From Aestuariivivens insulae (GTDB lineage Bacteria > Bacteroidota > Bacteroidia > Flavobacteriales > Flavobacteriaceae), in contig NZ_JAKMCS010000012.1 of the NCBI RefSeq assembly GCF_022662195.1, forward strand, positions 1 through 64,000: a stretch of 64,000 nucleotides of DNA. The letters run 5' to 3'. The notes under the pieces are model-generated. The model was not told where the DNA came from and did not search any database. It was given only the letters and a program-made list of their open reading frames with translations. Position 1 is the first letter of the stretch, and every line of letters starts with the position of its first letter. Shown here in pieces: positions 16,214-37,697 of this stretch. Position numbers and translations under genes: made by a program.

Positions 16214-18514
16214 CTATTTTTTTATAACGATAGTTGCCTTTTCATTAGCCAATTTCTCCAGAACTACTTCTTTAAACAAGGTATTTTTATGGTTTGCTGA
16301 TTTAACAAACTGGCTTTGCTTACTGTTTACAGATACCGATTTGTAGGCATTCAAAACATCCAGCACTTTAATTATCCACTTTTTTGAAGTGAGTTTGTTT
16401 TTATAATCCCCTTCGGCTTTCCCTATGGTTATTATCAACTCGCCTTGCGCGCCTACTTTTTGACTTAAAAGGGTTTTTGAATACTCGCCATTTTGATAAG
16501 CTATAGTTTTACTATCATCTTCATATAAGGTAAAGGAAGCAGACGATTTGGTTGGATATACTTCTAGGATTAAAACCTCTTCTTGTTGTCCTTCCTCTAT
16601 CCAATTACGTTCAGGTATTTTTGGTAGCATGGCTCCCGATTTTATAAACAGAGGCAACTTTTCTACGTCTTCGGTATTGTAGTTAATAATGCCACCATCC
16701 TTATACACTTCCTTGCTCCAATAGTCAATCCAGTCATTTCCTCGTGGCAAATATATTTCCATGGTCTTAAAATCGCCATAAACCGGGGCTACCAATAGAT
16801 TGGGCCCAAACATATACTGATAGGGCCAAGTATCAGAAAAACACAAATAGTCATCGGGAAAAGCAATAAGCATAGGACGGCTCATGGGCATACCTGTTAG
16901 GTAATTTTCAAAAGCCGTGGAATATATATAAGGCAATAGCTTATAGCGCTCTTTACGATGTTTTCTAATACTATTTTCAGCTGTTTTACCTTCACCCATA
17001 CCATCTACCGCATGGGTCAATCCGTCTTTGGTTTCCTTTACAACTACGTTTTCCCTGTCCTCAATTTTTATTTTATTCTGAAAATTGGCGACATCAATAT
17101 TACCTGCCCAGGGTTTAGGATTGTGGGATCTGGAAATGGCCGAAAAATCGGAAAACTGATTCCACCTTGCTTGAATTTGCCAAGTCTCACCAACTCCATC
17201 AGACGATATATAGGATACCCCTTTTAATGCGCCATGGGTATTAGTGATGGCTTTAATTTGCCATTTTAACTCATTCCAATTAAAGGAACAATCGCCTGTC
17301 CAATCAAACGGATACCGTCTAGATCCAATAATATTATTTACTGGCGTTACACTATACCTAAAATCCCACGGATTTACAGCTTGCATTTTCCGACAGCCCA
17401 TAAAAAGTACCCGATTATCGTCTCCCAAAAGCTCCTGTGTTCCCAACCATATTCTACTATCGGTAATATCATTTCGCCGCGTATCCTGCCAAGTGCCCCT
17501 AACACCAATATCCAATTTCTCTTTCCATTTTTGCCACCATAATGTTTCGGGTTGCACGGTTTCTGTCCAGCCTTGCCCTACTCTATTTTTAAAATCCGGT
17601 GCATTATGTTGGATTAACATCACATCAAAATGCATGGCCTTTAAACTATCTATCATGGTCTTTGGCGATAATGGCTTAGAATAGCTTTCAGACCAATCCA
17701 TAGCACTGCCCCAAACAATCTCTTTACCGTCTTGACAGCCATCACCCCACTCAAAATCGATAATTAAATTATCTACTGGGATATCATGTCTACGCAACTG
17801 TCTAGCGGCCTCCATCAGCTGTGTTTGATTTCCATGGCATGCCAAATGCTGCGTTTGGAAAAAACCAAAGGCTTTTTTGGGCAATAAAGGCTCTGGCCCC
17901 ACAAGCTGGTTAAACTGGTTATAGATCCCAGTATAAGAAGGGCCATAAATAAAGTAGGAATCCATAATGGCATCTTCTCCTAAATAAATGTCATAACGTT
18001 TGGTTTCAGGATTATAAAACCAATGGGCATACCTACTGTTATCGTTTTTTTCATTAAAAAAACTGGCACTGTCAAACATACTATAACCATCCTTAAACAT
18101 CCCATAAACAGGCCCATCCGATGGATAGACGCGTTTTTGTTCAGCTTTATCATCTACTCTAAGTAGCCCTTTGTATTCATCAATTTCAACGGTTAACCTT
18201 TCGGTCATAATAAAGTAGCTTATTCCTTCTTGCCGTACATTCACCTCTACTTTCTCCCAAGGCTCTACATGCCCTATAACAAATGGAATATCGTACTTTT
18301 TTGAAAATCCAAGACTATCATTCTGCAACGACCTAACCCGAAACATTGTTGGTAAATAAAACGATACTTCTGTAGTTTTTGAAAGGATTGCTTTTGTGGC
18401 ATATCCATCATAAATTACCCGAGCTGATTGTCCATAACAAGCAATACCTGCTACAAAAAGCACCATTAATATTCTAACTTTTTTTAACCGCTCTTTTAGC
18501 TTAACACCCGTCAT
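16214..18514 (-). CDS. Glycoside hydrolase family 31 (alpha-glycosidase), exported
   Basis: A 766-residue protein with an N-terminal signal ('ILMVLFVAGIACYGQSA'), a beta-sandwich N-terminal domain and a GH31 (beta/alpha)8 barrel starting near 'GPEPLLPKKAFGFFQTQHLACHGNQTQ'. The likely nucleophile is Asp344 in 'GTWQDTRRND' and the likely acid/base Asp408 in 'FDWTGDCSFNW'. The C-terminal 'YQYMFGPNLLVAPVYG' and 'LPLFIKSGAMLPKIP' blocks are typical. GH31 covers alpha-glucosidases, alpha-xylosidases, alpha-galactosidases and sulfoquinovosidases; the subfamily cannot be fixed by eye. It is the last gene of the operon, and its ATG overlaps the sulfotransferase stop codon (ATGA, 18511-18514), so translation is probably coupled. 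Only 14 bases separate it from the convergent fusion gene. Confidence 0.88.
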   Translation of the reverse strand: MTGVKLKERLKKVRILMVLFVAGIACYGQSARVIYDGYATKAILSKTTEVSFYLPTMFRVRSLQNDSLGFSKKYDIPFVIGHVEPWEKVEVNVRQEGISYFIMTERLTVEIDEYKGLLRVDDKAEQKRVYPSDGPVYGMFKDGYSMFDSASFFNEKNDNSRYAHWFYNPETKRYDIYLGEDAIMDSYFIYGPSYTGIYNQFNQLVGPEPLLPKKAFGFFQTQHLACHGNQTQLMEAARQLRRHDIPVDNLIIDFEWGDGCQDGKEIVWGSAMDWSESYSKPLSPKTMIDSLKAMHFDVMLIQHNAPDFKNRVGQGWTETVQPETLWWQKWKEKLDIGVRGTWQDTRRNDITDSRIWLGTQELLGDDNRVLFMGCRKMQAVNPWDFRYSVTPVNNIIGSRRYPFDWTGDCSFNWNELKWQIKAITNTHGALKGVSYISSDGVGETWQIQARWNQFSDFSAISRSHNPKPWAGNIDVANFQNKIKIEDRENVVVKETKDGLTHAVDGMGEGKTAENSIRKHRKERYKLLPYIYSTAFENYLTGMPMSRPMLIAFPDDYLCFSDTWPYQYMFGPNLLVAPVYGDFKTMEIYLPRGNDWIDYWSKEVYKDGGIINYNTEDVEKLPLFIKSGAMLPKIPERNWIEEGQQEEVLILEVYPTKSSASFTLYEDDSKTIAYQNGEYSKTLLSQKVGAQGELIITIGKAEGDYKNKLTSKKWIIKVLDVLNAYKSVSVNSKQSQFVKSANHKNTLFKEVVLEKLANEKATIVIKK

Positions 18515-19539
18515 GCCACAACAGCTTTAAAAGCGTTAAGCTCTTCCAATAATTCGTTTCTTTTAATGCGGCATAATCGGTCTACTTTTAAATGATTGGA
18601 CAACAGGGCTTCTTTTTTAAGCAGAACGTTTTTTTCGTTAAATTTATTAATGGTTTCAGCAGAAAACCCACTGCTTACTGGATTTGTAATCAAACCATAA
18701 CCATTCTCTTCTAAAACGTCACCTGCAACACGCTCAAAAATTTCAATTTCTTCAGGTGTAAGGACTTCCAAAAACTTTCTGGTGTTATTGGACATTATTG
18801 GCATGGTAAGATTGCTCCACATATATCCCGCCGCAGCAGTTATTTTAGATTCATTTGAATTGAAATATTCTAAAGCCGTCTCATCTAAATGCAATCCCAA
18901 AAAGGCATTTATCTGTTCAAGGACTTCTTTGGGGTTCGCTATAAGCGATTCATAACTAATCGTTAAACACCTTTTAGGTTCCACATGCTGAAATAACTTT
19001 TTTGCTTTCAAGTAATTGTTCTTCCAAATTGCTGCTAAATGGTAAGCATGCTTTTCGCCTACCAAAGTTTTTTTAAAGGATGCTGCTACATCGCGTCCAT
19101 CCCTAACCAAATGAATATAATAGGGTTTCATGCCATTAGCCTCAATAGCTTCGTAATAGTTTAGGTTTGCCATACTCTTACAGCACCAAAAGCTAGCGCC
19201 TTCCTGTATAGCCATAGCTTCATAAACAGCTCTGTACACTTCAACAAGTGTGTGTTCTCTACAGTTTTTTAATATCTCGTTCCGGTCTAAATTTAGATTC
19301 CATTTTACCGGATTGGTTTCAACTAATCTACATACATCGTGCACTAACCTTGAAAAATTATCATGCTGCTCTAAGTCTCCATATTTATGCAGAATGGGAT
19401 AAAACACCTTTAAAATATGTGGTGGGTGGTGTGCAGAAATCAAAGGTGATTGGTTCAAAATTAACCGAAGTAAATTCGAACCTGACCGTTGGGTTCCAAC
19501 AATTTGAATAGGCGTTAATGTCTTGCTTAATAAGGTCAT
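18511..19539 (-). CDS. PAPS-dependent sulfotransferase
   Basis: A 342-residue cytoplasmic protein. The 5'-phosphosulfate-binding loop is at residues 13-24 ('IVGTQRSGSNLLR') and the 3'-phosphate-binding region is 'HLVRDGRDVAASFKK' near residue 145, followed by 'CLTISYESLIANPKEVLEQINAFLGL'. This is the Sulfotransfer_1/3 fold, which moves the sulfuryl group from PAPS to a hydroxyl or amine acceptor. The acceptor is unknown; carbohydrate, lipid and tyrosine are all possible. Both gene ends overlap neighbours by 4 bases (ATGA with the transporter and with GH31), so it is a structural part of the polysaccharide operon. A PAPS-making kinase and PAP phosphatase are encoded just beyond susC. Confidence 0.88.
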   Translation of the reverse strand: MTLLSKTLTPIQIVGTQRSGSNLLRLILNQSPLISAHHPPHILKVFYPILHKYGDLEQHDNFSRLVHDVCRLVETNPVKWNLNLDRNEILKNCREHTLVEVYRAVYEAMAIQEGASFWCCKSMANLNYYEAIEANGMKPYYIHLVRDGRDVAASFKKTLVGEKHAYHLAAIWKNNYLKAKKLFQHVEPKRCLTISYESLIANPKEVLEQINAFLGLHLDETALEYFNSNESKITAAAGYMWSNLTMPIMSNNTRKFLEVLTPEEIEIFERVAGDVLEENGYGLITNPVSSGFSAETINKFNEKNVLLKKEALLSNHLKVDRLCRIKRNELLEELNAFKAVVA

Positions 19540-20756
19540 ATAAAACTAAATAATAATGTTAGTAAAATAATTAGGGCTGGATGGATTTTGGTAAACAAAA
19601 ACAATAAAAGGGAGATACTAAAAATTGCCCAAGGCAAGATGTTAAATCCAAAATGCTTTAACCCTATAATGTAGGCACCACTAAAAATGAGACCAATGAC
19701 TACCGATCGTACACCTTTCATCACCGCATCAATGTAAGTAAGGTGTTTTATTTTTTGTTGTACATGCGAAAGCAATATCATAAGTAGCGACGATGGCAAA
19801 AAAATAGATAGGGTTGCTATAATGGCCCCTGTAATGCCTCCCATTTTATAGCCAATAAAAGTAACACTGGATAAAATTGGCCCTGGTGTTACCTGACTTA
19901 TCCCTATGGCCGCATTAAACTCTTGAAGCGTTACCCAATGCAAATCACTTACAAGAGCTTGTTCCATGATGGGGATAATAACATACCCACCCCCAAATAA
20001 GGTTAAGCTCATTCCGGAAAATACCGATGCCAAAGACAATGAGGTACTCAACACTCCCGTAAAAAAAGATAAAAGCAGCATTAATGCTACAATGCTCGCC
20101 TCAATAACAACCAATGTTTTAAGTTCGGTTTTGTTTAAAGGTTTCGCTACACCAGGATTAGAATTAACAACTGGTTCTTCCTTACCATAAATAAAATAGC
20201 CTACCACCCCTCCTAAAAAAATAGATCCTATTAAAAATAGCACATTGGGAGCCGTAATAGCCACCATAAAAGCAATTATGGCAATACACCCCTGACTCAC
20301 CAATCGCATTTGTTTTTTAGCCATGTTAAAACCAACACTTGCAATTACTGCTGCCACTACTGGTATAATAAAAGCAATATGAAAATCGGCTTGCTCCCCA
20401 GTAGAAAAATAATACACCGAAAAGGTAGCCACTAAAACAACGGTAGGCAAAAGCACTCCAAAAAAACTAACCATTGCCCCTTTCACGCCCGACAAAATAA
20501 AACCGTAATAGACCACAGAGTTTACGGCCAATGGCCCAGGAAGTATGGATGCCAAAGAAACGCCATCCAAAATTTGGTCATCTGTTAATACCTTTCGTTT
20601 ATCAACCAATTGTTTTCTTACCATTGCGACCAAAGCCATATGCCCTCCAAAAGCATAACTTCCTATTAGGAAAAAATTCCAAAATAGCTCTTTAAGCGAT
20701 ATGCTAGTTTGAGGTGCTTTCAAAGGTTTAGTTTTTAATATAAAATGAAGGAACAA
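19536..20756 (-). CDS. chrA: ChrA-type transporter (CHR superfamily, two-domain)
   Basis: A 406-residue membrane protein made of two homologous CHR halves, each with an 'FGGG/FGG' loop ('YAFGGHMALVAMV' near 35 and 'LFGGGYVIIPIMEQALV' near 250) and a 'PGPL/PGPI' loop ('LASILPGPLAVNSV', 'ISQVTPGPILSSVTF'). Long-chain CHR proteins are proton-coupled chromate exporters; chromate is a structural mimic of sulfate. The location directly before a sulfotransferase suggests a sulfate- or oxyanion-related job here, but this is inference. The start overlaps the 3' end of the arylsulfotransferase-like gene by 29 bases, consistent with one transcript. Confidence 0.85.
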   Translation of the reverse strand: MFLHFILKTKPLKAPQTSISLKELFWNFFLIGSYAFGGHMALVAMVRKQLVDKRKVLTDDQILDGVSLASILPGPLAVNSVVYYGFILSGVKGAMVSFFGVLLPTVVLVATFSVYYFSTGEQADFHIAFIIPVVAAVIASVGFNMAKKQMRLVSQGCIAIIAFMVAITAPNVLFLIGSIFLGGVVGYFIYGKEEPVVNSNPGVAKPLNKTELKTLVVIEASIVALMLLLSFFTGVLSTSLSLASVFSGMSLTLFGGGYVIIPIMEQALVSDLHWVTLQEFNAAIGISQVTPGPILSSVTFIGYKMGGITGAIIATLSIFLPSSLLMILLSHVQQKIKHLTYIDAVMKGVRSVVIGLIFSGAYIIGLKHFGFNILPWAIFSISLLLFLFTKIHPALIILLTLLFSFI

Positions 20757-22065
20757 ATGTCGCCCTGTACGGATCGGGGATTCCTGTATTGATATGATAA
20801 CTAATTTCTCCTGATGGGGATAACACCAATATGGATCTGCTACGCGGCGAACATACTAAGTAATTGCCGTTGGGTAGGGTTTCTACATTTCCCATTTTAT
20901 CGGCATACAAATCATCTGGAAGGTTTATGGACACTACCGTTTGGGCTTTATTATCCTCCAATTTATAGGACACAACACTTGTTTGCCTTTGTTTTCTGCC
21001 ATTATTGAACAGCATGTAATTCCCTTTCGGGTCTTTATGAATGGCATGTTGACTATTGAAAGGCAGGTCTTCAAGTTGAAAATCGCCCTCTTCCCCTAAT
21101 ACCCATATCCGTTTGCCAGTTTTTATATCGATTTTCCATATTTGGCTCCAATCGCGATACGATATCAACAGGTTACCGTCATCATCAAATGCCAACGCAT
21201 TGGCATGCCCCCAGTCGCCATCCATATCTTCAAAGGAAATACCAACAGGATTTTTTATATCGAAGGTGCTCCACTTCCAAAGTACCTCTCCTTCTTTATT
21301 CAGCCGTACAACGGCACTCGAAACCGCTTTCTCTAATTGACCATTAACTTTATTGGGAATGGTGTCGTACACTATAGTAAAGACATCATCTTCATGTTCC
21401 AATACCTCGTGGTGCGCAACAAAGCCTAATGCGCTTAAATCTATTTGGTAAGTTATATCCCCATCAATAGTATATGAAACTATTCTGTTCCCCGCACTAT
21501 TATTATGTCTGGCATTACCAACCAATACCAAGACTTCATTATCTTTAGTCCATCTTGATAATTTGGGCTGCCCATCAACCATTTGATACCACACTAAATC
21601 GGATTCATTATCGAGCATATAAACACTTCCTTTAACTAACCGTCTTTGCGTAAGCACATAGCCATCGAATGCTTTTTTGGTATTAACCCTCTCGTAAACA
21701 CTCACAATATTTTCTTCAATGGGAGCCGTTCGAAAAGAGTCTATAACCGCTATCTCTTTTTCACCGTCTAAAATCTGTAATGCATAAGTCTCATTGGGCT
21801 TTAAACCCGCCAACAACAACTCATGTGCTTTGCTTTTAGTAGACACCAGATATTGCTCCTTATGTCTCTTTAAATTTTGTAGCCGAATGGTTACCAAAGC
21901 CGAATCGCTTAACGAAAACTGCAGTTTTTTTACCGTTGGATTTTTTGTTTGGGTAATTGTTGGCAAACCATTTACGGAAACCGCTTCTTTACAACTATGA
22001 AAAAAAAGCACCACTAGCAGTAATACCGCATAAAACCCCTGTTTCTTTTTGTTTTCTATATCCAT
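20728..22065 (-). CDS. Arylsulfotransferase (ASST)-like beta-propeller lipoprotein
   Basis: A 445-residue protein with a lipoprotein signal ('FYAVLLLVVLFFHSC'), a short fibronectin-like N-terminal domain (about 30-115, ending 'DSFRTAPI') and an ASST-type beta-propeller ('GYVLTQRRL', 'HHEVLEHEDDVFTIVYDT', 'DWGHANALAFDDDGNLLISYRDWSQIWKID', 'FNSQHAIHKDPKGNYMLFNNG'). Known ASSTs are PAPS-independent and shuttle sulfate between phenols through a sulfo-histidine. His287 in 'DWGHANAL' is a plausible candidate. Many Bacteroidota ASST-like proteins lack proven activity, so a sugar-binding or structural role is possible. It probably sits on the outer membrane or in the periplasm. Confidence 0.75.
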   Translation of the reverse strand: MDIENKKKQGFYAVLLLVVLFFHSCKEAVSVNGLPTITQTKNPTVKKLQFSLSDSALVTIRLQNLKRHKEQYLVSTKSKAHELLLAGLKPNETYALQILDGEKEIAVIDSFRTAPIEENIVSVYERVNTKKAFDGYVLTQRRLVKGSVYMLDNESDLVWYQMVDGQPKLSRWTKDNEVLVLVGNARHNNSAGNRIVSYTIDGDITYQIDLSALGFVAHHEVLEHEDDVFTIVYDTIPNKVNGQLEKAVSSAVVRLNKEGEVLWKWSTFDIKNPVGISFEDMDGDWGHANALAFDDDGNLLISYRDWSQIWKIDIKTGKRIWVLGEEGDFQLEDLPFNSQHAIHKDPKGNYMLFNNGRKQRQTSVVSYKLEDNKAQTVVSINLPDDLYADKMGNVETLPNGNYLVCSPRSRSILVLSPSGEISYHINTGIPDPYRATFVPSFYIKN

Positions 22066-22094: not shown

Positions 22095-25214
<3,120 letters not shown>

Positions 25215-25225
25215 TTAGTTTACTT

Positions 25226-27253
25226 TTATTCAATTAACAATAATACATGCGCTGCCGACCAACTAAAATGATTGGCATTCAAGCCTTCTCCGGTAATTGG
25301 ATGATAATTTTCCCTAATGGGATATCCTTTTTCCAGAAGGCCTTCGGCATTTTTAATAAGTTTTTCCTTTAATTGGATCGCCTCTTGTTTGTACCCATAA
25401 TTTTCCAAGCCAACTATGGCAAAATAGGCTTGATCTAACCAAACTGGACCACGCCAATATCCGTTTTGGGGATCGAAATCTTTATGGGTAATATTTAAAG
25501 TTGGAAATGGCACCTTACTATTAAATAAGGTTTGGTCCAGTATTTTATTTTTAACCGCTTTGGCTTTTTCTGAAGTGGCGATATTGGCCCAAAGTGGCAA
25601 CCACCCTTCTGGCCCTATCACATTAATGGTTTGATGATTATCTGTATTACGATCGAAGTAATATTGTTCTTTGTCGTTAAAAAAAGCAGTATTAATTGCT
25701 TCTGAAATTGCTTCTGCTTCTTTCTCCAGAAGGTCTATAGATGCTGTATTACCTGAAACTCTCGCCAATTTGACCAATCCTTTTTTTTCGGCCACCAGAT
25801 AAGCATTTAAATCAACCGATTCCTGATTTAACGACCAAGCCCTTGAATTGTTTTTAACTATTTGCGCCTCATCGAACCTCACGGCATTGTCCATACCACT
25901 TTCCCAAGCCGCAGCAATTCTAGTTCCATCGGTAGAGCCATATTCGCATAGCTTATTACCATCATGGTCTCTATTGGCATACCACCAATTATGGTATTTT
26001 AGAAGTTTAGGGAACATCTGTTTTACAAAAACGGTATCTCCGGTTTGTTCAAAAATTTCATTAACTGCCCACGTGGCCAGTGGAGGTTTGGTATCCCGCC
26101 AATTATGCTTCTCTATAAGGGTATCCCGAAACACACAATCGGCAATCATACCTTCGTTATCTTGGTAATCGAACATGGCCAATACTTGTGCCTTGGCTAA
26201 TTTAGGCTCAAACCGAGCTAGGGCCACCGCATGCTTCCAAGAGTCCCATGCCCAAAACCCGTGGAATCCTTGGTATAGGTAAGACGGAAATAACCCGTCA
26301 TGTTTCAATTCACCCTCGGCAGTTTTCCAGTTTCCTATTAGGGTCTGTATTGCTTTTGTTTTTAGCAATTCAAAATCCAATGAATCCAACCAATGCCCTT
26401 TTGTGTAGGGAAAGGCTTCATGATAAGCTTTCCATCGGTTAATGGTTTGATTATAGGAATTGACCACAAAATCATTACTAATAGATTGCTCCTTTTGGTT
26501 TTCAGCTTTTTGAAAAAATGAGGAATATTGTAAATTGACTGTTTCAGCTGTATTAGGCTGTATTTTAAATGCCTTTGAAGTCTTGGTTACAAACGATTTT
26601 CCTGAATCATCCACTTCAGTTTTAAAATCTCTGTCGAACTGATAATAATGAACCGATTCAGCATCTGAAAAGGTCACCTTTAGCGCTTCTTCTGAATTAA
26701 ATTGAGCCATTTCCAACCACACATCACCTTCCCACCCCACAAAGAGTGCTATAGGTTTTGAATTGTTATTTTGAACTTTAGCCGATACCAACACCGAAGT
26801 ACTTGAATAAAACCATAGTTTTAAATTGATTTCCAAGCCCTCTATTTCTGTAATAATATGCTGTTCTAAATAACCGGGATACTGATTTAAATTAGCCTTT
26901 ACATACTGTATCTTATCTCCGTTTGCTTTATATAATGATAGTTTTGCAAATGTTTTCCCTAACCAAATGCCGTTGTCCCTATCCATAGAAAAAGGTCCTA
27001 TAAAACTTCCGTAAAATTCCTCACTATTGTTGGGCAAGGCAAAAGCATGCCAAGATCCCAAATCGGTAAAACTAGACACCGAACGATCTTGTGGTGTATT
27101 GGGTACTCCTTTTAGATTGAGGACATTAGACATAAAATTGTTATGAGCTAATGGCAACGATTTGTTATTGACTTCCTTTTTACAGGACAGCCAACCTACC
27201 AATAGCGCCAAGCACAATAATGTGACATATATAGTAAATGTTCTTATTTTCAT
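25226..27253 (-). CDS. Glycoside hydrolase family 63 (YgjK-like), lipoprotein
   Basis: A 675-residue protein with a lipoprotein signal ('LLCLALLVGWLSC'). It has an N-terminal beta-sandwich and a C-terminal (alpha/alpha)6 barrel marked by 'GFHGFWAWDSWKHAVALARFEP', 'LIEKHNWRDTKPPLATWAV' and 'GYWRGPVWLDQAYFAIVGLENYG', the conserved GH63 blocks also found in E. coli YgjK. GH63 enzymes are inverting alpha-glucosidases. YgjK has been crystallised with Glc-alpha-1,2-Gal, a disaccharide that also occurs on collagen hydroxylysine. The ATG overlaps the FG-GAP gene stop by 4 bases. Mannosylglycerate hydrolase-like activity is an alternative within this fold. Confidence 0.82.
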   Translation of the reverse strand: MKIRTFTIYVTLLCLALLVGWLSCKKEVNNKSLPLAHNNFMSNVLNLKGVPNTPQDRSVSSFTDLGSWHAFALPNNSEEFYGSFIGPFSMDRDNGIWLGKTFAKLSLYKANGDKIQYVKANLNQYPGYLEQHIITEIEGLEINLKLWFYSSTSVLVSAKVQNNNSKPIALFVGWEGDVWLEMAQFNSEEALKVTFSDAESVHYYQFDRDFKTEVDDSGKSFVTKTSKAFKIQPNTAETVNLQYSSFFQKAENQKEQSISNDFVVNSYNQTINRWKAYHEAFPYTKGHWLDSLDFELLKTKAIQTLIGNWKTAEGELKHDGLFPSYLYQGFHGFWAWDSWKHAVALARFEPKLAKAQVLAMFDYQDNEGMIADCVFRDTLIEKHNWRDTKPPLATWAVNEIFEQTGDTVFVKQMFPKLLKYHNWWYANRDHDGNKLCEYGSTDGTRIAAAWESGMDNAVRFDEAQIVKNNSRAWSLNQESVDLNAYLVAEKKGLVKLARVSGNTASIDLLEKEAEAISEAINTAFFNDKEQYYFDRNTDNHQTINVIGPEGWLPLWANIATSEKAKAVKNKILDQTLFNSKVPFPTLNITHKDFDPQNGYWRGPVWLDQAYFAIVGLENYGYKQEAIQLKEKLIKNAEGLLEKGYPIRENYHPITGEGLNANHFSWSAAHVLLLIE

Positions 27254-30200
27254 AGATTTGGTGCTTTACGCTTTTGGGTCTTTAATAAATGAAACCTCAG
27301 CTTATCATTGTTATAAACTGATAATAGCCCCTTGTCTCCATTACCCAAGGTGATTAATTTCATATCCCGAAGGTCTCCATTTAGATAAAGCCCAGTTTTT
27401 GTATTATCCAGATTTGAAAACCCTCCTTTGCCATCACCAAGTAAAAGTGTTCCCATACTGGCATCGTTTCTTGTGGTTTCTACTTCCGACTGATAATTGT
27501 TTCCTGCCAACAAAACATCTAAATGCCCATCATCGTTAAAATCGAATACCTCGATAGCATTAACCGCTGAGAACTGTGCCGAAATGGGCAATGGCCTAAC
27601 CTCAAAGCTTTTATTGCCTTTATTTTCCACATAAACCGACGCAAAACTGTAAACACTGTAGTGCAACGCATTTTGAAGTTGATCTGTTCCATAAACATCA
27701 GATAGGTTTGCACTGGCAAATTCGTGATAGGTTGGAAATCTTTCTTTAATGCTTGGCATTTGCTGCGACGAACATTCTCGTCCACGCAATGGGTATAGAT
27801 TACCTTTTTCGTGATAACTCAACACAATATCAAACTTGCCATTGTTATCAAAATCATTGGCAAAGACCTCAAATGGTGCTTCAATACTGGCTTTGTATTT
27901 ATAATTCAATCCGTTATTCCCTATAATGTAATCTATATCGCCATCACCATCAAAATCGGAACCAGCAATGGCATTCCACCATCCTGTTGTATGCTCAATC
28001 CCCGTAATACCTTCATCTTTTTTAAACACGCCATTGTTATTTTCTAAAAAGACAACCCCTGTCCACTCGCCTACCAAAATGATGTCTATATCGCCATCGG
28101 TATCATAATCGGTCCAGGAAAAGTCGGTAATCATACCAATGTTCACCAAATCGGGTGCAAGCTCTAAAGTGGCATCTTTAAGTACGCCATGCTCATTTAA
28201 AAATAGTTTCGATGTTGTTGGCGAAGGGTATCTTCCGGGAAATTGTCTGCCTACCGAAAGGACATCCAAATCACCGTCCCCATCAAAATCGAATGCCTTT
28301 ACTTGAGAACCACTCTGACTGGAACCATCAATTTTTACAGATTTATTATAGATACCATTATTGTTTATATACAAACGATCGGTATAGAGCTTATGTCCAT
28401 TTACAAATTCATTTCCCCCACTTACTACATACAAATCATTATCGCCGTCGGCATCAACATCAAACAACAACGACCCCATGTCTTCATATTGTTTATCGTT
28501 TACCAAAGCAGGTTGGTTTATTCTTTTAAAACTACTTTCATTTGTTTGCATAAAAACCGCTCCTGCCTGACCCTGGGCTCCGCCAACATAAATGTCATTC
28601 AACCCATCATTATTAATGTCGCCTACGGATGCATGAGGCCCTAGCCTGCTCATACGATGTGGGATAAGCACTTCCCTTTCAAAATCATTAAACTCATTTT
28701 CTTTATGCTGAAAATCGAGACCTAAGCTATTGGCCGAATCTGTTGAAAACAAGTAATTATCTGCTATGTCCTTTATTTTTGAAGGCTTGGAAATTGCATT
28801 CTTACAATCCAAAACCAACTTTTGATTGGTGGCTACATTATATAGGGTTTGCTTTTTGTCATCCGGCCAAGTAATTTCTAAACTGTCAATGCTTTTACTG
28901 CCTTTAAAACCAAAATGGATAATAGGTTCTACCGAAGATTGATAGCCCCGAGTGGTATACATTTCCTTGGTTTGAAAGGTCCTTTCATTATAAACCCTTA
29001 CTTGCGCCCCAATTCCAGAACTGTTATTTTCCGATCCTTTAAGGCTAAGGGTTAAATAATTGCCCAAGTGCTGGTCTACGCTATTGTTTTTATATATAAA
29101 TGGTTCTTCATCTACATTATTGACCACCAAATCCAAATCACCATCGTTATCGAAATCGCCATAGGCCAACCCATTTGAAAAGGATTTGACAGCTATACCC
29201 CATTCGGAAACTTTATTTTCAAACTTCAGATTATTGTGTCCTTTATAAACATAATTAACCAATTGCTTTTGTGGTGTTAGATTTACCAAACTTTCAATTA
29301 GTGCTTTTTTATTGACGTTGGCTTGCTTTTCGGCTTCGGCAATAGCTTTCTTTTTATAATTTCTGAAATCGTTATTTCTAAAATCACGTTTTAGTCCATT
29401 GGTAACAAATAAATCCTGAATACCATCTAAATCGATATCCAAAAAAAGAGGCGCCCAACTCCAATCGGTATTGGACATTCCCGAATATTGTCCAATCTCA
29501 CTAAAATGTAAATTCCCTCTGTTTAGTTGTAAGGTGTTGTGCATGTATTGGTAATGGAATCCGTTTTTAACATGGGCAAAGAACAGTTCTTCATTCATAC
29601 TGCTCATGCTTGTTTTTTTTCCGTAATTGTCTTCGGAAACCATATCTAAAACAGCAATATCCATTAGGCCATCGTTGTTGATATCGGCTATATCGGTTCC
29701 CATGGCATAATTGGACTGATGACCAAATGATGATTTAGTTTCTTCCTTAAACGTACCGTCTTGTTGGTTTATGTAAAGAAAATCATGTTCGGAATAATCG
29801 TTTGCTACATACAAATCTGGCCAACCATCTTGGTTTAAATCTCCTGCCGAAACTCCTAAGCCATAGCCCAACTCGTTTGAAATGATTCCTGCTTTTTCTG
29901 AAACATCTACAAAAATGCCGTTATCATTCCGAAACAGTTTATCGCCCACATTGGGGTCTCTGGTCCGTTTAATTTTTTCAATATTAAAAAAGGGCTTAAC
30001 GTTCACATTATGATTAAGTAGAAACATATCCAAATCGCCGTCCTTATCAAAATCAAAAAATAAGGCTTGGGTACCATAACCTGTATCTGCCAATCCTAGT
30101 TTGGTAGCAGATTCTTCATAGATAGGTATATTTTGGGTTGATAGTCCTTTTGATACAAAGAACAGATTGGCACGTTGTGCTTCTGGTAATTTACCTGAAC

Positions 30201-30618
30201 GGCACACATAGATATCCAAAATGCCATCGTTATTTATATCGACCATAGTCGTGCCTGTGGTCCAGCTTGGAGAATCCCATACACCAGCTGCTTTTGTAAT
30301 ATCCTTAAACTTAAAACCTCCAAGGTTTAAATAGAGTTTGTTAGGGGTTACATTACCTGTAAAAAACACATCGGGCAAGCCATCTTTGTTCACATCGCCA
30401 ACCGAAACACCGCCTCCATTATAATAGTACTCATAGGTCATACTATTCATTTCCGCACTCTCTGGTATGGTGTTTTTAAAACCCATCCCCATAGCATTTC
30501 CTTTTAGTACAGAAAACAATGGCTCGTTTGCGACAGCCTTAACGGTATTATTAACCGTAGCCTTATCGTTGTTACAGGCCATAAATAAACTTATTATCAG
30601 GAGTACTCTAAACTTCAT
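27250..30618 (-). CDS. FG-GAP / VCBS repeat lipoprotein with ASPIC-UnbV domain (CRTAC1-like)
   Basis: A 1122-residue lipoprotein (signal 'VLLIISLFMAC') with many calcium-binding propeller repeats of the D-x-D-x-DG-x-x-D type: 'GDVNKDGLPDVFF', 'VDINNDGILDIYV', 'FDFDKDGDLDMFL' and further copies to the C-terminus. An ASPIC/UnbV domain lies in the middle (about 500-610: 'SLKGSENNSSGIGAQVRVYNE', 'HFGFKGSKSIDSLEITWP'). Proteins of this type are often encoded beside SusCD in marine Bacteroidota and are thought to be surface-exposed binding or adhesion factors; no enzyme activity is established. In human CRTAC1 the same domain pair is an extracellular-matrix protein of cartilage. It starts 147 bases after susD, beyond an attenuator-like hairpin. 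Confidence 0.88.
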   Translation of the reverse strand: MKFRVLLIISLFMACNNDKATVNNTVKAVANEPLFSVLKGNAMGMGFKNTIPESAEMNSMTYEYYYNGGGVSVGDVNKDGLPDVFFTGNVTPNKLYLNLGGFKFKDITKAAGVWDSPSWTTGTTMVDINNDGILDIYVCRSGKLPEAQRANLFFVSKGLSTQNIPIYEESATKLGLADTGYGTQALFFDFDKDGDLDMFLLNHNVNVKPFFNIEKIKRTRDPNVGDKLFRNDNGIFVDVSEKAGIISNELGYGLGVSAGDLNQDGWPDLYVANDYSEHDFLYINQQDGTFKEETKSSFGHQSNYAMGTDIADINNDGLMDIAVLDMVSEDNYGKKTSMSSMNEELFFAHVKNGFHYQYMHNTLQLNRGNLHFSEIGQYSGMSNTDWSWAPLFLDIDLDGIQDLFVTNGLKRDFRNNDFRNYKKKAIAEAEKQANVNKKALIESLVNLTPQKQLVNYVYKGHNNLKFENKVSEWGIAVKSFSNGLAYGDFDNDGDLDLVVNNVDEEPFIYKNNSVDQHLGNYLTLSLKGSENNSSGIGAQVRVYNERTFQTKEMYTTRGYQSSVEPIIHFGFKGSKSIDSLEITWPDDKKQTLYNVATNQKLVLDCKNAISKPSKIKDIADNYLFSTDSANSLGLDFQHKENEFNDFEREVLIPHRMSRLGPHASVGDINNDGLNDIYVGGAQGQAGAVFMQTNESSFKRINQPALVNDKQYEDMGSLLFDVDADGDNDLYVVSGGNEFVNGHKLYTDRLYINNNGIYNKSVKIDGSSQSGSQVKAFDFDGDGDLDVLSVGRQFPGRYPSPTTSKLFLNEHGVLKDATLELAPDLVNIGMITDFSWTDYDTDGDIDIILVGEWTGVVFLENNNGVFKKDEGITGIEHTTGWWNAIAGSDFDGDGDIDYIIGNNGLNYKYKASIEAPFEVFANDFDNNGKFDIVLSYHEKGNLYPLRGRECSSQQMPSIKERFPTYHEFASANLSDVYGTDQLQNALHYSVYSFASVYVENKGNKSFEVRPLPISAQFSAVNAIEVFDFNDDGHLDVLLAGNNYQSEVETTRNDASMGTLLLGDGKGGFSNLDNTKTGLYLNGDLRDMKLITLGNGDKGLLSVYNNDKLRFHLLKTQKRKAPNL

Positions 30619-35853: not shown

Positions 35854-36660
35854 ATGGATACACCCGCATCATACTTAAATATGGCTATAAAGGCCTCCTT
35901 AAAGGCTGGAGAAGAAATCCTGAAAATTTATAACCGCGATTTTTCCGTAGCATATAAAGACGATAAATCGCCATTAACGGAAGCCGATTTAATTTCCAAT
36001 AGTATTATTAAAGCTGAGTTACGGCATACTAGTATTCCTATTATAAGTGAAGAAAGTAAACAGGATTCTTACGCATTGAGAAAAACATGGAGCCAATGTT
36101 GGATTGTAGATCCTATTGACGGCACAAAGGAATTTATAAAGAAGAATGGGGAATTTACTGTGAATATTGCACTAGTAGAGAAAGGCATAACCCAATTGGG
36201 TATAATTTATGTGCCTGTTAGCAAGGAACTCTATTATACCGATCCCAAAAAATCCAGAGCATACAAAACTATTGTTTCTGATGTCAATGGGCCTTTAAAC
36301 AGCTTTTTGTTCAGTGACAAGGATCTTATAAAACCCTCTATGGAGCAAGGAGAAACAATAAGAGTTGTTGGAAGCCGATCCCATATGAACCAAGACACAT
36401 TAAATTATGTTAAGAGCTTGGAAAAGATTGGTAAACAAGTTGAAATAGTATCAAAGGGAAGTTCATTAAAATTTTGCTTGGTCGCAGAAGGAAAGGCCGA
36501 TATTTACCCTAGGTTTGCGCCTACCATGGAATGGGATACAGCTGCGGGCCAGGCCATATGTGAGGCCGTTGGACTTAAGGTTATCGATCAACAAACCCTT
36601 AATCCCATACAATACAATAAAGAAAACCTAACTAACAATTACTTTTTAGTTTCCCAATAA
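35854..36660 (+). CDS. cysQ: 3'(2'),5'-bisphosphate nucleotidase (PAP phosphatase)
   Basis: A 268-residue inositol-monophosphatase-fold enzyme. Metal-site motifs are 'DDKSPLTEADLISNS', 'IISEES', 'WIVDPIDGTKEFIKKNGEFTVNIALVE' and 'TMEWDTAAGQAICEA'; the 'DPIDGTKEF' form is typical of CysQ. It hydrolyses 3'-phosphoadenosine 5'-phosphate, the by-product of PAPS-using sulfotransferases, to AMP. It leads a three-gene operon with a DUF2061 membrane protein and cysC, divergent from susC. A start at 35881 (MAIKASLK) is also possible because the first nine residues are not conserved-looking. Confidence 0.92.
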   Translation: MDTPASYLNMAIKASLKAGEEILKIYNRDFSVAYKDDKSPLTEADLISNSIIKAELRHTSIPIISEESKQDSYALRKTWSQCWIVDPIDGTKEFIKKNGEFTVNIALVEKGITQLGIIYVPVSKELYYTDPKKSRAYKTIVSDVNGPLNSFLFSDKDLIKPSMEQGETIRVVGSRSHMNQDTLNYVKSLEKIGKQVEIVSKGSSLKFCLVAEGKADIYPRFAPTMEWDTAAGQAICEAVGLKVIDQQTLNPIQYNKENLTNNYFLVSQ

Positions 36661-36666
36661 TACCTG

Positions 36667-37083
36667 ATGCAAAACAGCATATATAAAAGACATATAGCCA
36701 AAACAATAACCTGGAGAATTGTAGGTACTATAGATACCATTTTACTATCTTGGATGATTTCGGGCAATTCATTAACTGGCCTAAAAATAGGAGGACTGGA
36801 ACTAATAACAAAAATGATTTTGTATTATTGTCATGAGCAAGTATGGTATAAAGCAAATGTCACCAAAAGCCAAAAAAGACATTTTTTAAAGACCATAACC
36901 TGGAGAATCATAGGAACATTAGACACCATGCTATTAGCATGGATTATAACAGGAAATCCATTAACAGGGTTTAGTATTGGCATTGCCGAAGTGCTTACAA
37001 AAATGGTTTTGTATTATTTGCACGAACGTACCTGGTATAAAATAGATTTTGGTTTAGAAAAGAGAAGAAGGTCAAAACAATGA
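36667..37083 (+). CDS. DUF2061 membrane protein, tandem-duplicated
   Basis: 138 residues made of two copies of the DUF2061 unit: 'RHIAKTITWRIVGTIDTILLSW' (about 8-29) and 'RHFLKTITWRIIGTLDTMLLAW' (about 75-96). Each is followed by a second hydrophobic stretch and a closing 'YY.HE..WYK'. Each unit should span the membrane twice. The domain is repeatedly found between PAPS and sulfate genes but has no known activity. The stop codon overlaps the cysC start (ATGA, 37080-37083), indicating coupled translation. A sulfate-handling or scaffolding role is inference. Confidence 0.85.
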   Translation: MQNSIYKRHIAKTITWRIVGTIDTILLSWMISGNSLTGLKIGGLELITKMILYYCHEQVWYKANVTKSQKRHFLKTITWRIIGTLDTMLLAWIITGNPLTGFSIGIAEVLTKMVLYYLHERTWYKIDFGLEKRRRSKQ

Positions 37084-37697
37084 CAAAAAACATCAGAAAT
37101 CAGCAATACAAAATTAGCAGGGAAGAACGCCAAAAATTAAACGGGCATCATTCGTTTTTGGTTTTCTTTACTGGTCTGTCGGGAGCAGGGAAATCCACTT
37201 TGGCCAATGCATTGGAAGAAAAACTGCATGGAATGAAAATCCATACCTATGTTTTGGACGGCGACAATATAAGGCGGGGCATTAATAAAAATTTAGGGTT
37301 TTCTCCTGAAGACCGATCTGAAAACAATAGAATTATAGGTGAAATATCCAATCTGTTTATAGACGCAGGTATATTGGTTTTAGCCGCTTTTGTGGCGCCC
37401 TATAAAAAGGACAGGGATTTCATTAAGGAAACAGTGGGTGAAGACCATTTTATTGAAGTTTTTGTTAACACCAGTTTGGAAGAATGCGAAAGAAGGGACA
37501 CTAAAGGGTTATACCAAAAAGCTCGAATTGGGAAAATTAAAAACCTAACCGGCATTTCGGCTCCTTATGAAATACCTGAAAACCCAAACATTGAAGTGTC
37601 CCATTTAAACACCATTGATGAATCTGTAGAGATTATTTTCCAATATATTAAAGATAAATTGGATTTAAAATTAACTCATCCCGATAAAACACTTTGA
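37080..37697 (+). CDS. cysC: Adenylylsulfate kinase
   Basis: A 205-residue P-loop kinase: Walker A 'FTGLSGAGKSTLANALE' (about 30-46), 'LDGDNIRRGINKNLGFSPEDRSENNRI', 'VAPYKKDRDF' and 'FVNTSLEECERRDTKGLYQKARIGKIKNLTGISAPYE', all standard for APS kinase. It phosphorylates adenylylsulfate to PAPS. ATP sulfurylase (CysDN or Sat) and PAPS reductase are not in the window. The pairing with a PAP phosphatase and nearby sulfotransferase fits supply of PAPS for sulfation rather than cysteine synthesis. It is the last gene of the operon before a terminator. Confidence 0.95.
   Translation: MTKNIRNQQYKISREERQKLNGHHSFLVFFTGLSGAGKSTLANALEEKLHGMKIHTYVLDGDNIRRGINKNLGFSPEDRSENNRIIGEISNLFIDAGILVLAAFVAPYKKDRDFIKETVGEDHFIEVFVNTSLEECERRDTKGLYQKARIGKIKNLTGISAPYEIPENPNIEVSHLNTIDESVEIIFQYIKDKLDLKLTHPDKTL

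What the first reader, a model, noticed from the sequence alone, without database searches (positions are those of the whole stretch)
18511..22065. Sulfotransferase, arylsulfotransferase-like protein and ChrA built into a sugar-utilisation operon
Polysaccharide operons in marine Bacteroidota usually carry sulfatases that remove sulfate. This one has no sulfatase. Instead it encodes a PAPS sulfotransferase coupled by ATGA overlaps to a ChrA-type transporter and a GH31, plus an ASST-like lipoprotein. Adding sulfate while degrading sugar is unexpected. Possible roles: tagging an imported product, sulfating a surface glycan or lipid made from the released sugar, or sulfate export.
Basis: partly seen in the sequence, partly recalled or inferred. 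Interest (0 to 1): 0.65.

Follow-up and report, generated by a model that had tools for sequence, protein, structure and literature searches.

The report
Two-enzyme sulfation module inside sugar operons
This marine bacterium's sugar-eating operon carries a recurring three-gene module, probably adding sulfate in two steps: one enzyme in the cytoplasm, a membrane transporter, and a second enzyme outside the inner membrane; a two-enzyme relay of this kind is otherwise known from an antibiotic pathway.

Summary
One co-directional operon carries an ASST-type lipoprotein, a ChrA-type transporter and a PAPS sulfotransferase (ST). ChrA-ST and ST-GH31 overlap as ATGA. The operon and window contain no sulfatase, although the genome has about 43.

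The interpretation changes. The unit is not "sulfation of this sugar" but a portable ASST-ChrA-ST cassette. Of 14 genomes found with this ST subfamily, 12 have ChrA directly beside ST and ASST in the same locus. The surroundings vary: GH63/GH2/GH31 with hydroxylysine genes, GH20 with GlcNAc genes, or no sugar genes at all. "No sulfatase" is local, because related loci carry sulfatases. In two same-genus genomes the whole 19.7-kb block is absent between the hydroxylysine gene and cysQ-cysC, so it looks like an insertion.

Both enzymes look catalytically intact. The ASST's closest solved structure, by sequence and by fold, is Cpz4, which in caprazamycin biosynthesis uses phenolic sulfates made by a PAPS sulfotransferase (Cpz8). 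Best model: a relay across the inner membrane. ST loads a small, probably phenolic, carrier; ChrA exports it; ASST transfers the sulfate to a periplasmic or surface acceptor. Carrier, acceptor and transport direction are inferred. Novelty: new variant of a known kind.

The parts
18511..19539 (-). ST: PAPS-dependent sulfotransferase (Sulfotransfer_3), 342 aa
   Evidence: PF13469 E 5e-26; P-loop GTQRSGSN and 3'-phosphate motif RDGRDVxxSF invariant in 10 orthologues; AlphaFold model pLDDT 82, closest folds TPST1/2, CurM and olefin-synthase sulfotransferases
19536..20756 (-). ChrA: CHR-family two-domain transporter, 406 aa (TTG start; the G359 orthologue has ATG at this position)
   Evidence: PF02417 E 1e-69, two domains; TIGR00937 above cut-off; directly beside ST in 12 of 14 ST genomes
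20728..22065 (-). ASST: PAPS-independent arylsulfate-sulfotransferase-type lipoprotein, 445 aa, lipobox Cys25
   Evidence: PF05935; H218, H287, N289, R304, H340 align with E. coli AssT H252, H356, N358, R374, H436; AlphaFold model pLDDT 87, best PDB fold hit Cpz4 9kf6, then AssT
16214..18514 (-). GH31 glycosidase, signal peptide, ATGA overlap with ST
   Evidence: PF01055/PF21365, overlap, closest PDB alpha-xylosidase/alpha-glucosidase GH31
22095..25214 (-). GH2 beta-galactosidase, LacZ type, lipoprotein
   Evidence: NF052611 above cut-off
25226..27253 (-). GH63-type alpha-glucosidase (YgjK-like), lipoprotein
   Evidence: PF22422, PF21152; E. coli YgjK 3d3i E 7.5e-76
27250..30618 (-). FG-GAP/UnbV-ASPIC lipoprotein
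   Evidence: PF13517, PF07593
30766..32277 (-). SusD-type glycan-binding lipoprotein
   Evidence: PF07980, PF14322
32290..35328 (-). SusC-type TonB-dependent outer-membrane transporter
   Evidence: carboxypeptidase-like N-terminal domain, plug and barrel seen in the sequence; homologous to SusC in related loci; no family search run on it
35854..36660 (+). CysQ: PAP 3'-phosphatase (inositol monophosphatase family)
   Evidence: PF00459; beside APS kinase
36667..37083 (+). DUF2061 small membrane protein
   Evidence: PF09834; sits between CysQ and CysC also in G002, G003, G017
37080..37697 (+). CysC: APS kinase (makes PAPS), the only copy in the genome
   Evidence: PF01583 E 2.5e-62; one match in G000
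13158..16199 (+). Left flank: APH-type kinase, M23 and class III aminotransferase fusion, candidate 5-hydroxylysine kinase/phospholyase; immediate neighbour of cysQ in same-genus genomes that lack the operon
   Evidence: PF01636, PF01551, PF00202; empty site

Best explanation
The three genes form a sulfate relay across the inner membrane. CysC supplies PAPS and CysQ removes the by-product PAP. The cytoplasmic ST moves sulfate from PAPS onto a small, probably phenolic, carrier. ChrA exports the anionic sulfate ester. The ASST lipoprotein takes the sulfuryl group onto His340 and passes it to a hydroxyl of a periplasmic or surface acceptor, most likely a sugar; the free carrier can be reused. The cassette is portable and has been recruited into several SusCD sugar operons, so sulfation is switched on together with uptake of the glycan. 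Shown here: gene order, intact catalytic residues, conservation of the trio, the operon-free site in sister species, closest structure Cpz4. Inferred: carrier, acceptor, transport direction and benefit.
For: (1) 12 of 14 genomes with this ST subfamily have ChrA directly beside ST and ASST in the locus, in at least three families of the class; the ASST gene is on either side of the pair, or about 9-10 kb away in two genomes. (2) Two loci have ChrA-ST-ASST as a stand-alone operon without SusCD or glycosidases (G871, G949), and a Robiginitalea MAG has ASST-ChrA-ST without sugar genes nearby: the trio is the unit. (3) All catalytic residues of ASST are conserved in 13 homologues except Arg304 in two; the lipobox Cys is invariant in the 10 of A3. 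(4) ST P-loop and 3'-phosphate motifs are invariant. (5) The best PDB match of ASST by sequence profile (E 3e-28 against 3.5e-8 for AssT) and by fold is Cpz4, which works downstream of the PAPS sulfotransferase Cpz8 via phenolic sulfate esters (PMC4257720) and prefers sugar hydroxyls (PMC13426309). (6) A different Flavobacteriaceae genome has ASST-CysQ-CysC-CysD-CysN-sulfotransferase (PF17784)-MFS in one direction, an independent pairing of both enzyme types with PAPS supply. (7) In G273 cysQ-cysC follow ST on the same strand after about 70 bp, and in G183 after one GH20 gene.
Against: No carrier-making gene is conserved in the cassette; a common phenol would have to serve. I found no report of a ChrA carrying organic sulfates; the known role is chromate, with sulfate discussed. 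G991 and G905 keep ST without a linked ChrA. cysQ-cysC beside this copy is explained by an older neighbourhood (empty site), and the genome's CysH looks like a PAPS-type reductase, so CysC is also needed for sulfate assimilation. The benefit to a sugar degrader is unexplained.
Confidence: 0.5

Rival explanations
1. Two separate jobs. ChrA imports sulfate to feed PAPS synthesis, ST sulfates an imported sugar, lipid or hydroxylysine product in the cytoplasm, and ASST acts independently on phenolic sulfates met outside.
For: CHR proteins are annotated as oxyanion transporters; the PAPS kinase is nearby; ST-ChrA is tighter than ASST in G248 and Wocania, where ASST lies about 9-10 kb off.
Against: ASST stays in the locus in all 12 ChrA-ST loci, including loci without sugar genes; the genome must already import sulfate for its CysDNH set on another contig, as must relatives that lack ChrA.
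Confidence: 0.25
2. Protection or marking of the cell's own surface. The cassette sulfates a capsule or O-antigen during growth on animal or algal glycans, and the co-encoded glycosidases are unrelated to the acceptor.
For: The acceptor is not linked to one glycan type (GH63/GH2/GH31, GH20, none); the lipoprotein location allows it.
Against: Repeated recruitment into SusCD operons suggests a link to the incoming glycan; no EPS glycosyltransferases lie beside the cassette, unlike the genome's other PF13469 gene on C11.
Confidence: 0.15
3. Sulfate scavenging: ASST strips sulfate from the incoming glycan onto a phenol instead of a sulfatase, and ST/ChrA run in reverse.
For: No sulfatase in this operon; AST reactions are reversible in principle.
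Against: Sugar sulfates have low transfer potential compared with aryl sulfates (established chemistry); related loci carry ordinary sulfatases beside ASST; a PAP phosphatase in the neighbourhood favours the forward direction.
Confidence: 0.05
4. Passenger genes without a joint function, brought together by chance or by transfer of the island.
For: The whole block is an insertion relative to two same-genus genomes.
Against: The same trio recurs in at least three families with different neighbours and with intact active sites.
Confidence: 0.05

Closest known systems
Caprazamycin two-step sulfation (Cpz8 PAPS sulfotransferase plus Cpz4 arylsulfate sulfotransferase), Streptomyces
   Same: PAPS sulfotransferase paired with an ASST; Cpz4 is the closest solved structure to this ASST; Cpz4 prefers sugar hydroxyls (PMC13426309)
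   Different: Antibiotic cluster with a type III polyketide synthase making the carrier; no ChrA known to me and no sugar operon; ASST identity only 19% in the structural alignment
E. coli AssT (3ELQ)
   Same: Same fold and same His/His/Arg/His active site; secreted
   Different: I know of no PAPS sulfotransferase or ChrA encoded with it; larger; weaker match
CHR superfamily ChrA (TIGR00937)
   Same: Two-domain transporter above the family cut-off
   Different: No chrB or chromate-resistance genes nearby; beside ST here; GGxMAL in place of the usual GGP motif (usual motif from memory)
Polysaccharide utilisation loci with sulfatases
   Same: SusCD plus exo-glycosidases; relatives of this locus carry sulfatases
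   Different: This one has sulfate-adding genes and no sulfatase
AdpST sulfation cassette (Streptomyces davaonensis, PMC12135136)
   Same: Sulfotransferase with dedicated PAPS genes
   Different: No ASST or transporter described in the cassette; different acceptor

Membership tests
PAPS sulfotransferase (Sulfotransfer_3) | Pfam profile over its full length | tested here: met
   PF13469 1-216 of 216, E 5e-26
PAPS sulfotransferase (Sulfotransfer_3) | P-loop and 3'-phosphate binding motif | tested here: met
   GTQRSGSN and RDGRDVxxSF invariant in 10 sequences
PAPS sulfotransferase (Sulfotransfer_3) | PAPS-dependent transfer activity | not testable with these tools
   needs enzyme assay
Arylsulfate sulfotransferase (ASST) | Beta-propeller fold of AssT/Cpz4 | tested here: met
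   AlphaFold model matches 9kf6, 4p07, 4p05, 3elq first
Arylsulfate sulfotransferase (ASST) | Catalytic His436 and His252, His356, Arg374 | tested here: met
   H340, H218, H287, R304 in the window protein
Arylsulfate sulfotransferase (ASST) | Use of aryl sulfate donors, not PAPS | not testable with these tools
   needs enzyme assay
Two-step sulfation relay (Cpz8/Cpz4 kind) | PAPS sulfotransferase and ASST encoded together | tested here: met
   12 loci, with ChrA between or beside them
Two-step sulfation relay (Cpz8/Cpz4 kind) | Enzyme making an aromatic carrier in the cluster | tested here: not met
   no polyketide synthase or other conserved aromatic-making gene seen in the loci; so filed as 'works like', not as a member
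CHR chromate/sulfate transporter | TIGR00937 / PF02417 tandem domains | tested here: met
   191 bits, cut-off 171.7
CHR chromate/sulfate transporter | Chromate or sulfate as substrate | not testable with these tools
   no transport data
Polysaccharide utilisation locus | SusC-SusD pair with glycosidases in one operon | tested here: met

The most novel reading that the evidence does not exclude
A general bacterial system for sulfating molecules outside the inner membrane, where PAPS is not available: a cytoplasmic sulfotransferase charges a diffusible aryl-sulfate carrier, a CHR protein exports it, and an ASST lipoprotein spends it. It would give CHR transporters a first organic-sulfate role, give ASSTs a physiological donor, and show that sugar-degrading Bacteroidota sulfate glycans while feeding.
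Probability: 0.35. Interest if true: 0.85.

Novelty: new variant of a known kind. Interest (0 to 1): 0.63.

Why it matters
A 2026 review says that the physiological role and natural substrates of most bacterial ASSTs remain unknown (PMC13426309). A conserved operon that pairs an ASST with a PAPS sulfotransferase and one transporter makes donor, route and direction testable. It also offers a sulfate-ester function for a subgroup of CHR transporters, and an answer to how sulfate could be added to glycans in the periplasm, where PAPS is absent. If the acceptor is the imported glycan, the usual picture of marine Bacteroidota as sulfate removers needs amending.

Tried and rejected
Sulfatase-free operon as the key anomaly: rejected, because relatives have sulfatases in the same loci and this genome has about 43. 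CysQ-CysC as proof of dedicated PAPS supply at this locus: weakened, because in G002 and G003 these genes sit beside the hydroxylysine gene without any sulfotransferase. Weaker ST hits (G378, G127, G744, G764, G512; E 1e-41 to 1e-66) lie in surface-polysaccharide clusters or among unrelated genes without ChrA or ASST and were set aside as a different group. Base composition shows no sharp island boundary (GC 0.33-0.40 throughout). The single genome-contig scan used one protein and returned only two loci. Paper searches for ASST with chromate transporter, and for sulfotransferase with chromate transporter in polysaccharide loci, returned nothing. Gene trees agree on the GH20-type group for all three genes but not on Wocania's ASST, which is more diverged than its ST and ChrA and may have been exchanged.
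Full report
What is there. The minus-strand operon runs SusC 35328-32290, SusD, FG-GAP/UnbV lipoprotein, GH63-type glucosidase, GH2 LacZ, ASST, ChrA, ST, GH31 (ends 16214). ChrA-ST, ST-GH31 and UnbV-GH63 overlap by 4 bases (the first two as ATGA, the third as the ATGA of CTATGAAA); ASST-ChrA overlap by 29 bp. On the other strand, 526 bp from the SusC start, lie CysQ, DUF2061 and CysC. No sulfatase lies in the window; the genome has 44 PF00884 matches elsewhere, 43 above the cut-off.

The enzymes look active. ST keeps the P-loop GTQRSGSN and the 3'-phosphate motif RDGRDVxxSF in all ten orthologues aligned. Its model (pLDDT 82) is closest to tyrosylprotein sulfotransferases and to the CurM/olefin-synthase sulfotransferases. 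The ASST aligns with E. coli AssT such that His252, His356, Arg374 and His436 fall on H218, H287, R304 and H340. The mapping can be read directly from the alignment numbering, and the H436N mutant chain (4p04 group) shows Asn at that position. The residues are conserved in 13 homologues except R304 in two. The lipobox cysteine is invariant in the ten of A3, so the protein should be a lipoprotein outside the inner membrane. The best solved match, by profile and by fold, is Cpz4 (9kf4/9kf6), ahead of AssT.

The cassette is conserved and portable. Searches of about 1,590 whole genomes and one contig scan found this ST subfamily in 14 genomes. In twelve, ChrA adjoins ST and ASST is in the locus: window, Wocania, Robiginitalea MAG, G359, G248, G017, G162, G183, G273, G481, G949, G871. 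G991 has no ChrA at all, and in G905 it is on another contig. The neighbours fall into groups. Window, Wocania and G359 have GH63 with UnbV and the hydroxylysine-type kinase gene, plus GH2 and/or GH31. G017, G162, G183 and G273 have SusCD with GH20 in or near the locus (in G017 also NagB- and NagA-like genes recognised by eye; in G162 a PF01182 gene). G871, G949 and the MAG have no SusCD or glycosidases seen nearby. So the sugar varies and the trio stays.

Sulfatases and the empty site. Wocania's locus holds at least four sulfatases with C-x-P/S-x-R motifs (read by eye), and G359 holds two, so the absence in the window is a local feature. In two genomes of the same genus, the kinase-aminotransferase gene is followed after about 130-160 bp by CysQ-DUF2061-CysC, with no operon between them. 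In the window 19.7 kb separate the two. The simplest reading is that the whole operon entered there (or was lost in the others). This also means that CysQ-CysC closeness in the window is partly inherited. In G273 they follow ST on the same strand, and in G183 after one GH20 gene, which is better evidence of a functional link. CysC is single-copy in this genome, and the CysH on C22 ends in ECGLH without paired cysteines, which suggests a PAPS-type reductase; CysC then serves assimilation too.

How it probably works. A PAPS sulfotransferase and an ASST in one cluster have a precedent: Cpz8 makes phenolic sulfate esters that Cpz4 uses to sulfate the antibiotic (PMC4257720). Cpz4 prefers sugar hydroxyls (PMC13426309). 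A second, independent Flavobacteriaceae arrangement, ASST-CysQ-CysC-CysD-CysN-sulfotransferase-MFS (G035; CysN by eye), pairs both enzyme types with PAPS supply and a transporter. Here the two enzymes should be on opposite sides of the inner membrane, and the third conserved gene is a membrane transporter. The relay model follows; the carrier, acceptor and direction are inferred. The tyrosylprotein-sulfotransferase-like fold is compatible with a phenolic acceptor for ST but does not prove it.

What the operon may feed on. A YgjK-like GH63 (E 7.5e-76), a LacZ-type GH2 and a gene set next door resembling hydroxylysine breakdown (kinase/phospholyase fusion, aldehyde dehydrogenase, HglS) would suit glucosyl-galactosyl-hydroxylysine of collagen. 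YgjK's action on Glc-alpha-1,2-Gal is from memory. This is a lead, not a test. Wocania's cluster also has a secreted M43 protease.

Verdict. The kind is known (two-step sulfation), the arrangement is new to me and to the papers searched: a transporter-linked pair recruited into sugar operons. Interest 0.63.

Noticed in passing
window 8493-16199: Kinase-M23-aminotransferase fusion, APC permease, aldehyde dehydrogenase and HglS (2-oxoadipate dioxygenase) next to the operon: a candidate hydroxylysine/lysine breakdown set, suggesting collagen glycan use.
   Followed up: partly
L064:10453-15473 and L066:10763-15764: In same-genus genomes the hydroxylysine-type kinase gene is directly followed by cysQ-DUF2061-cysC without any sulfotransferase; why these genes are neighbours is unexplained.
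   Followed up: partly
L098:9607-16981: G035: canonical ASST lipoprotein, CysQ, CysC, CysD, CysN, Sulfotransfer_4 sulfotransferase and MFS transporter in one direction, a second ASST plus PAPS sulfotransferase cluster.
   Followed up: partly
L107:15709-19722 and L111:5680-9727: ChrA-ST-ASST stand-alone operons without sugar genes; the ASST-like protein there is longer (578-584 aa) and a radical-SAM-like gene (read by eye) follows.
   Followed up: partly
window 36667-37083: DUF2061 membrane protein sits between CysQ and CysC in several genomes; possible role in sulfate or PAP handling.
   Followed up: no
window 27250-30618: Large FG-GAP/UnbV-ASPIC lipoprotein directly after SusD, shared with Wocania and G359; function in the sugar locus unknown.
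   Followed up: no
L050:2841-4865: Secreted M43 metalloprotease with PKD and Por secretion domains beside the Wocania SusCD, a possible collagenase-like enzyme.
   Followed up: no
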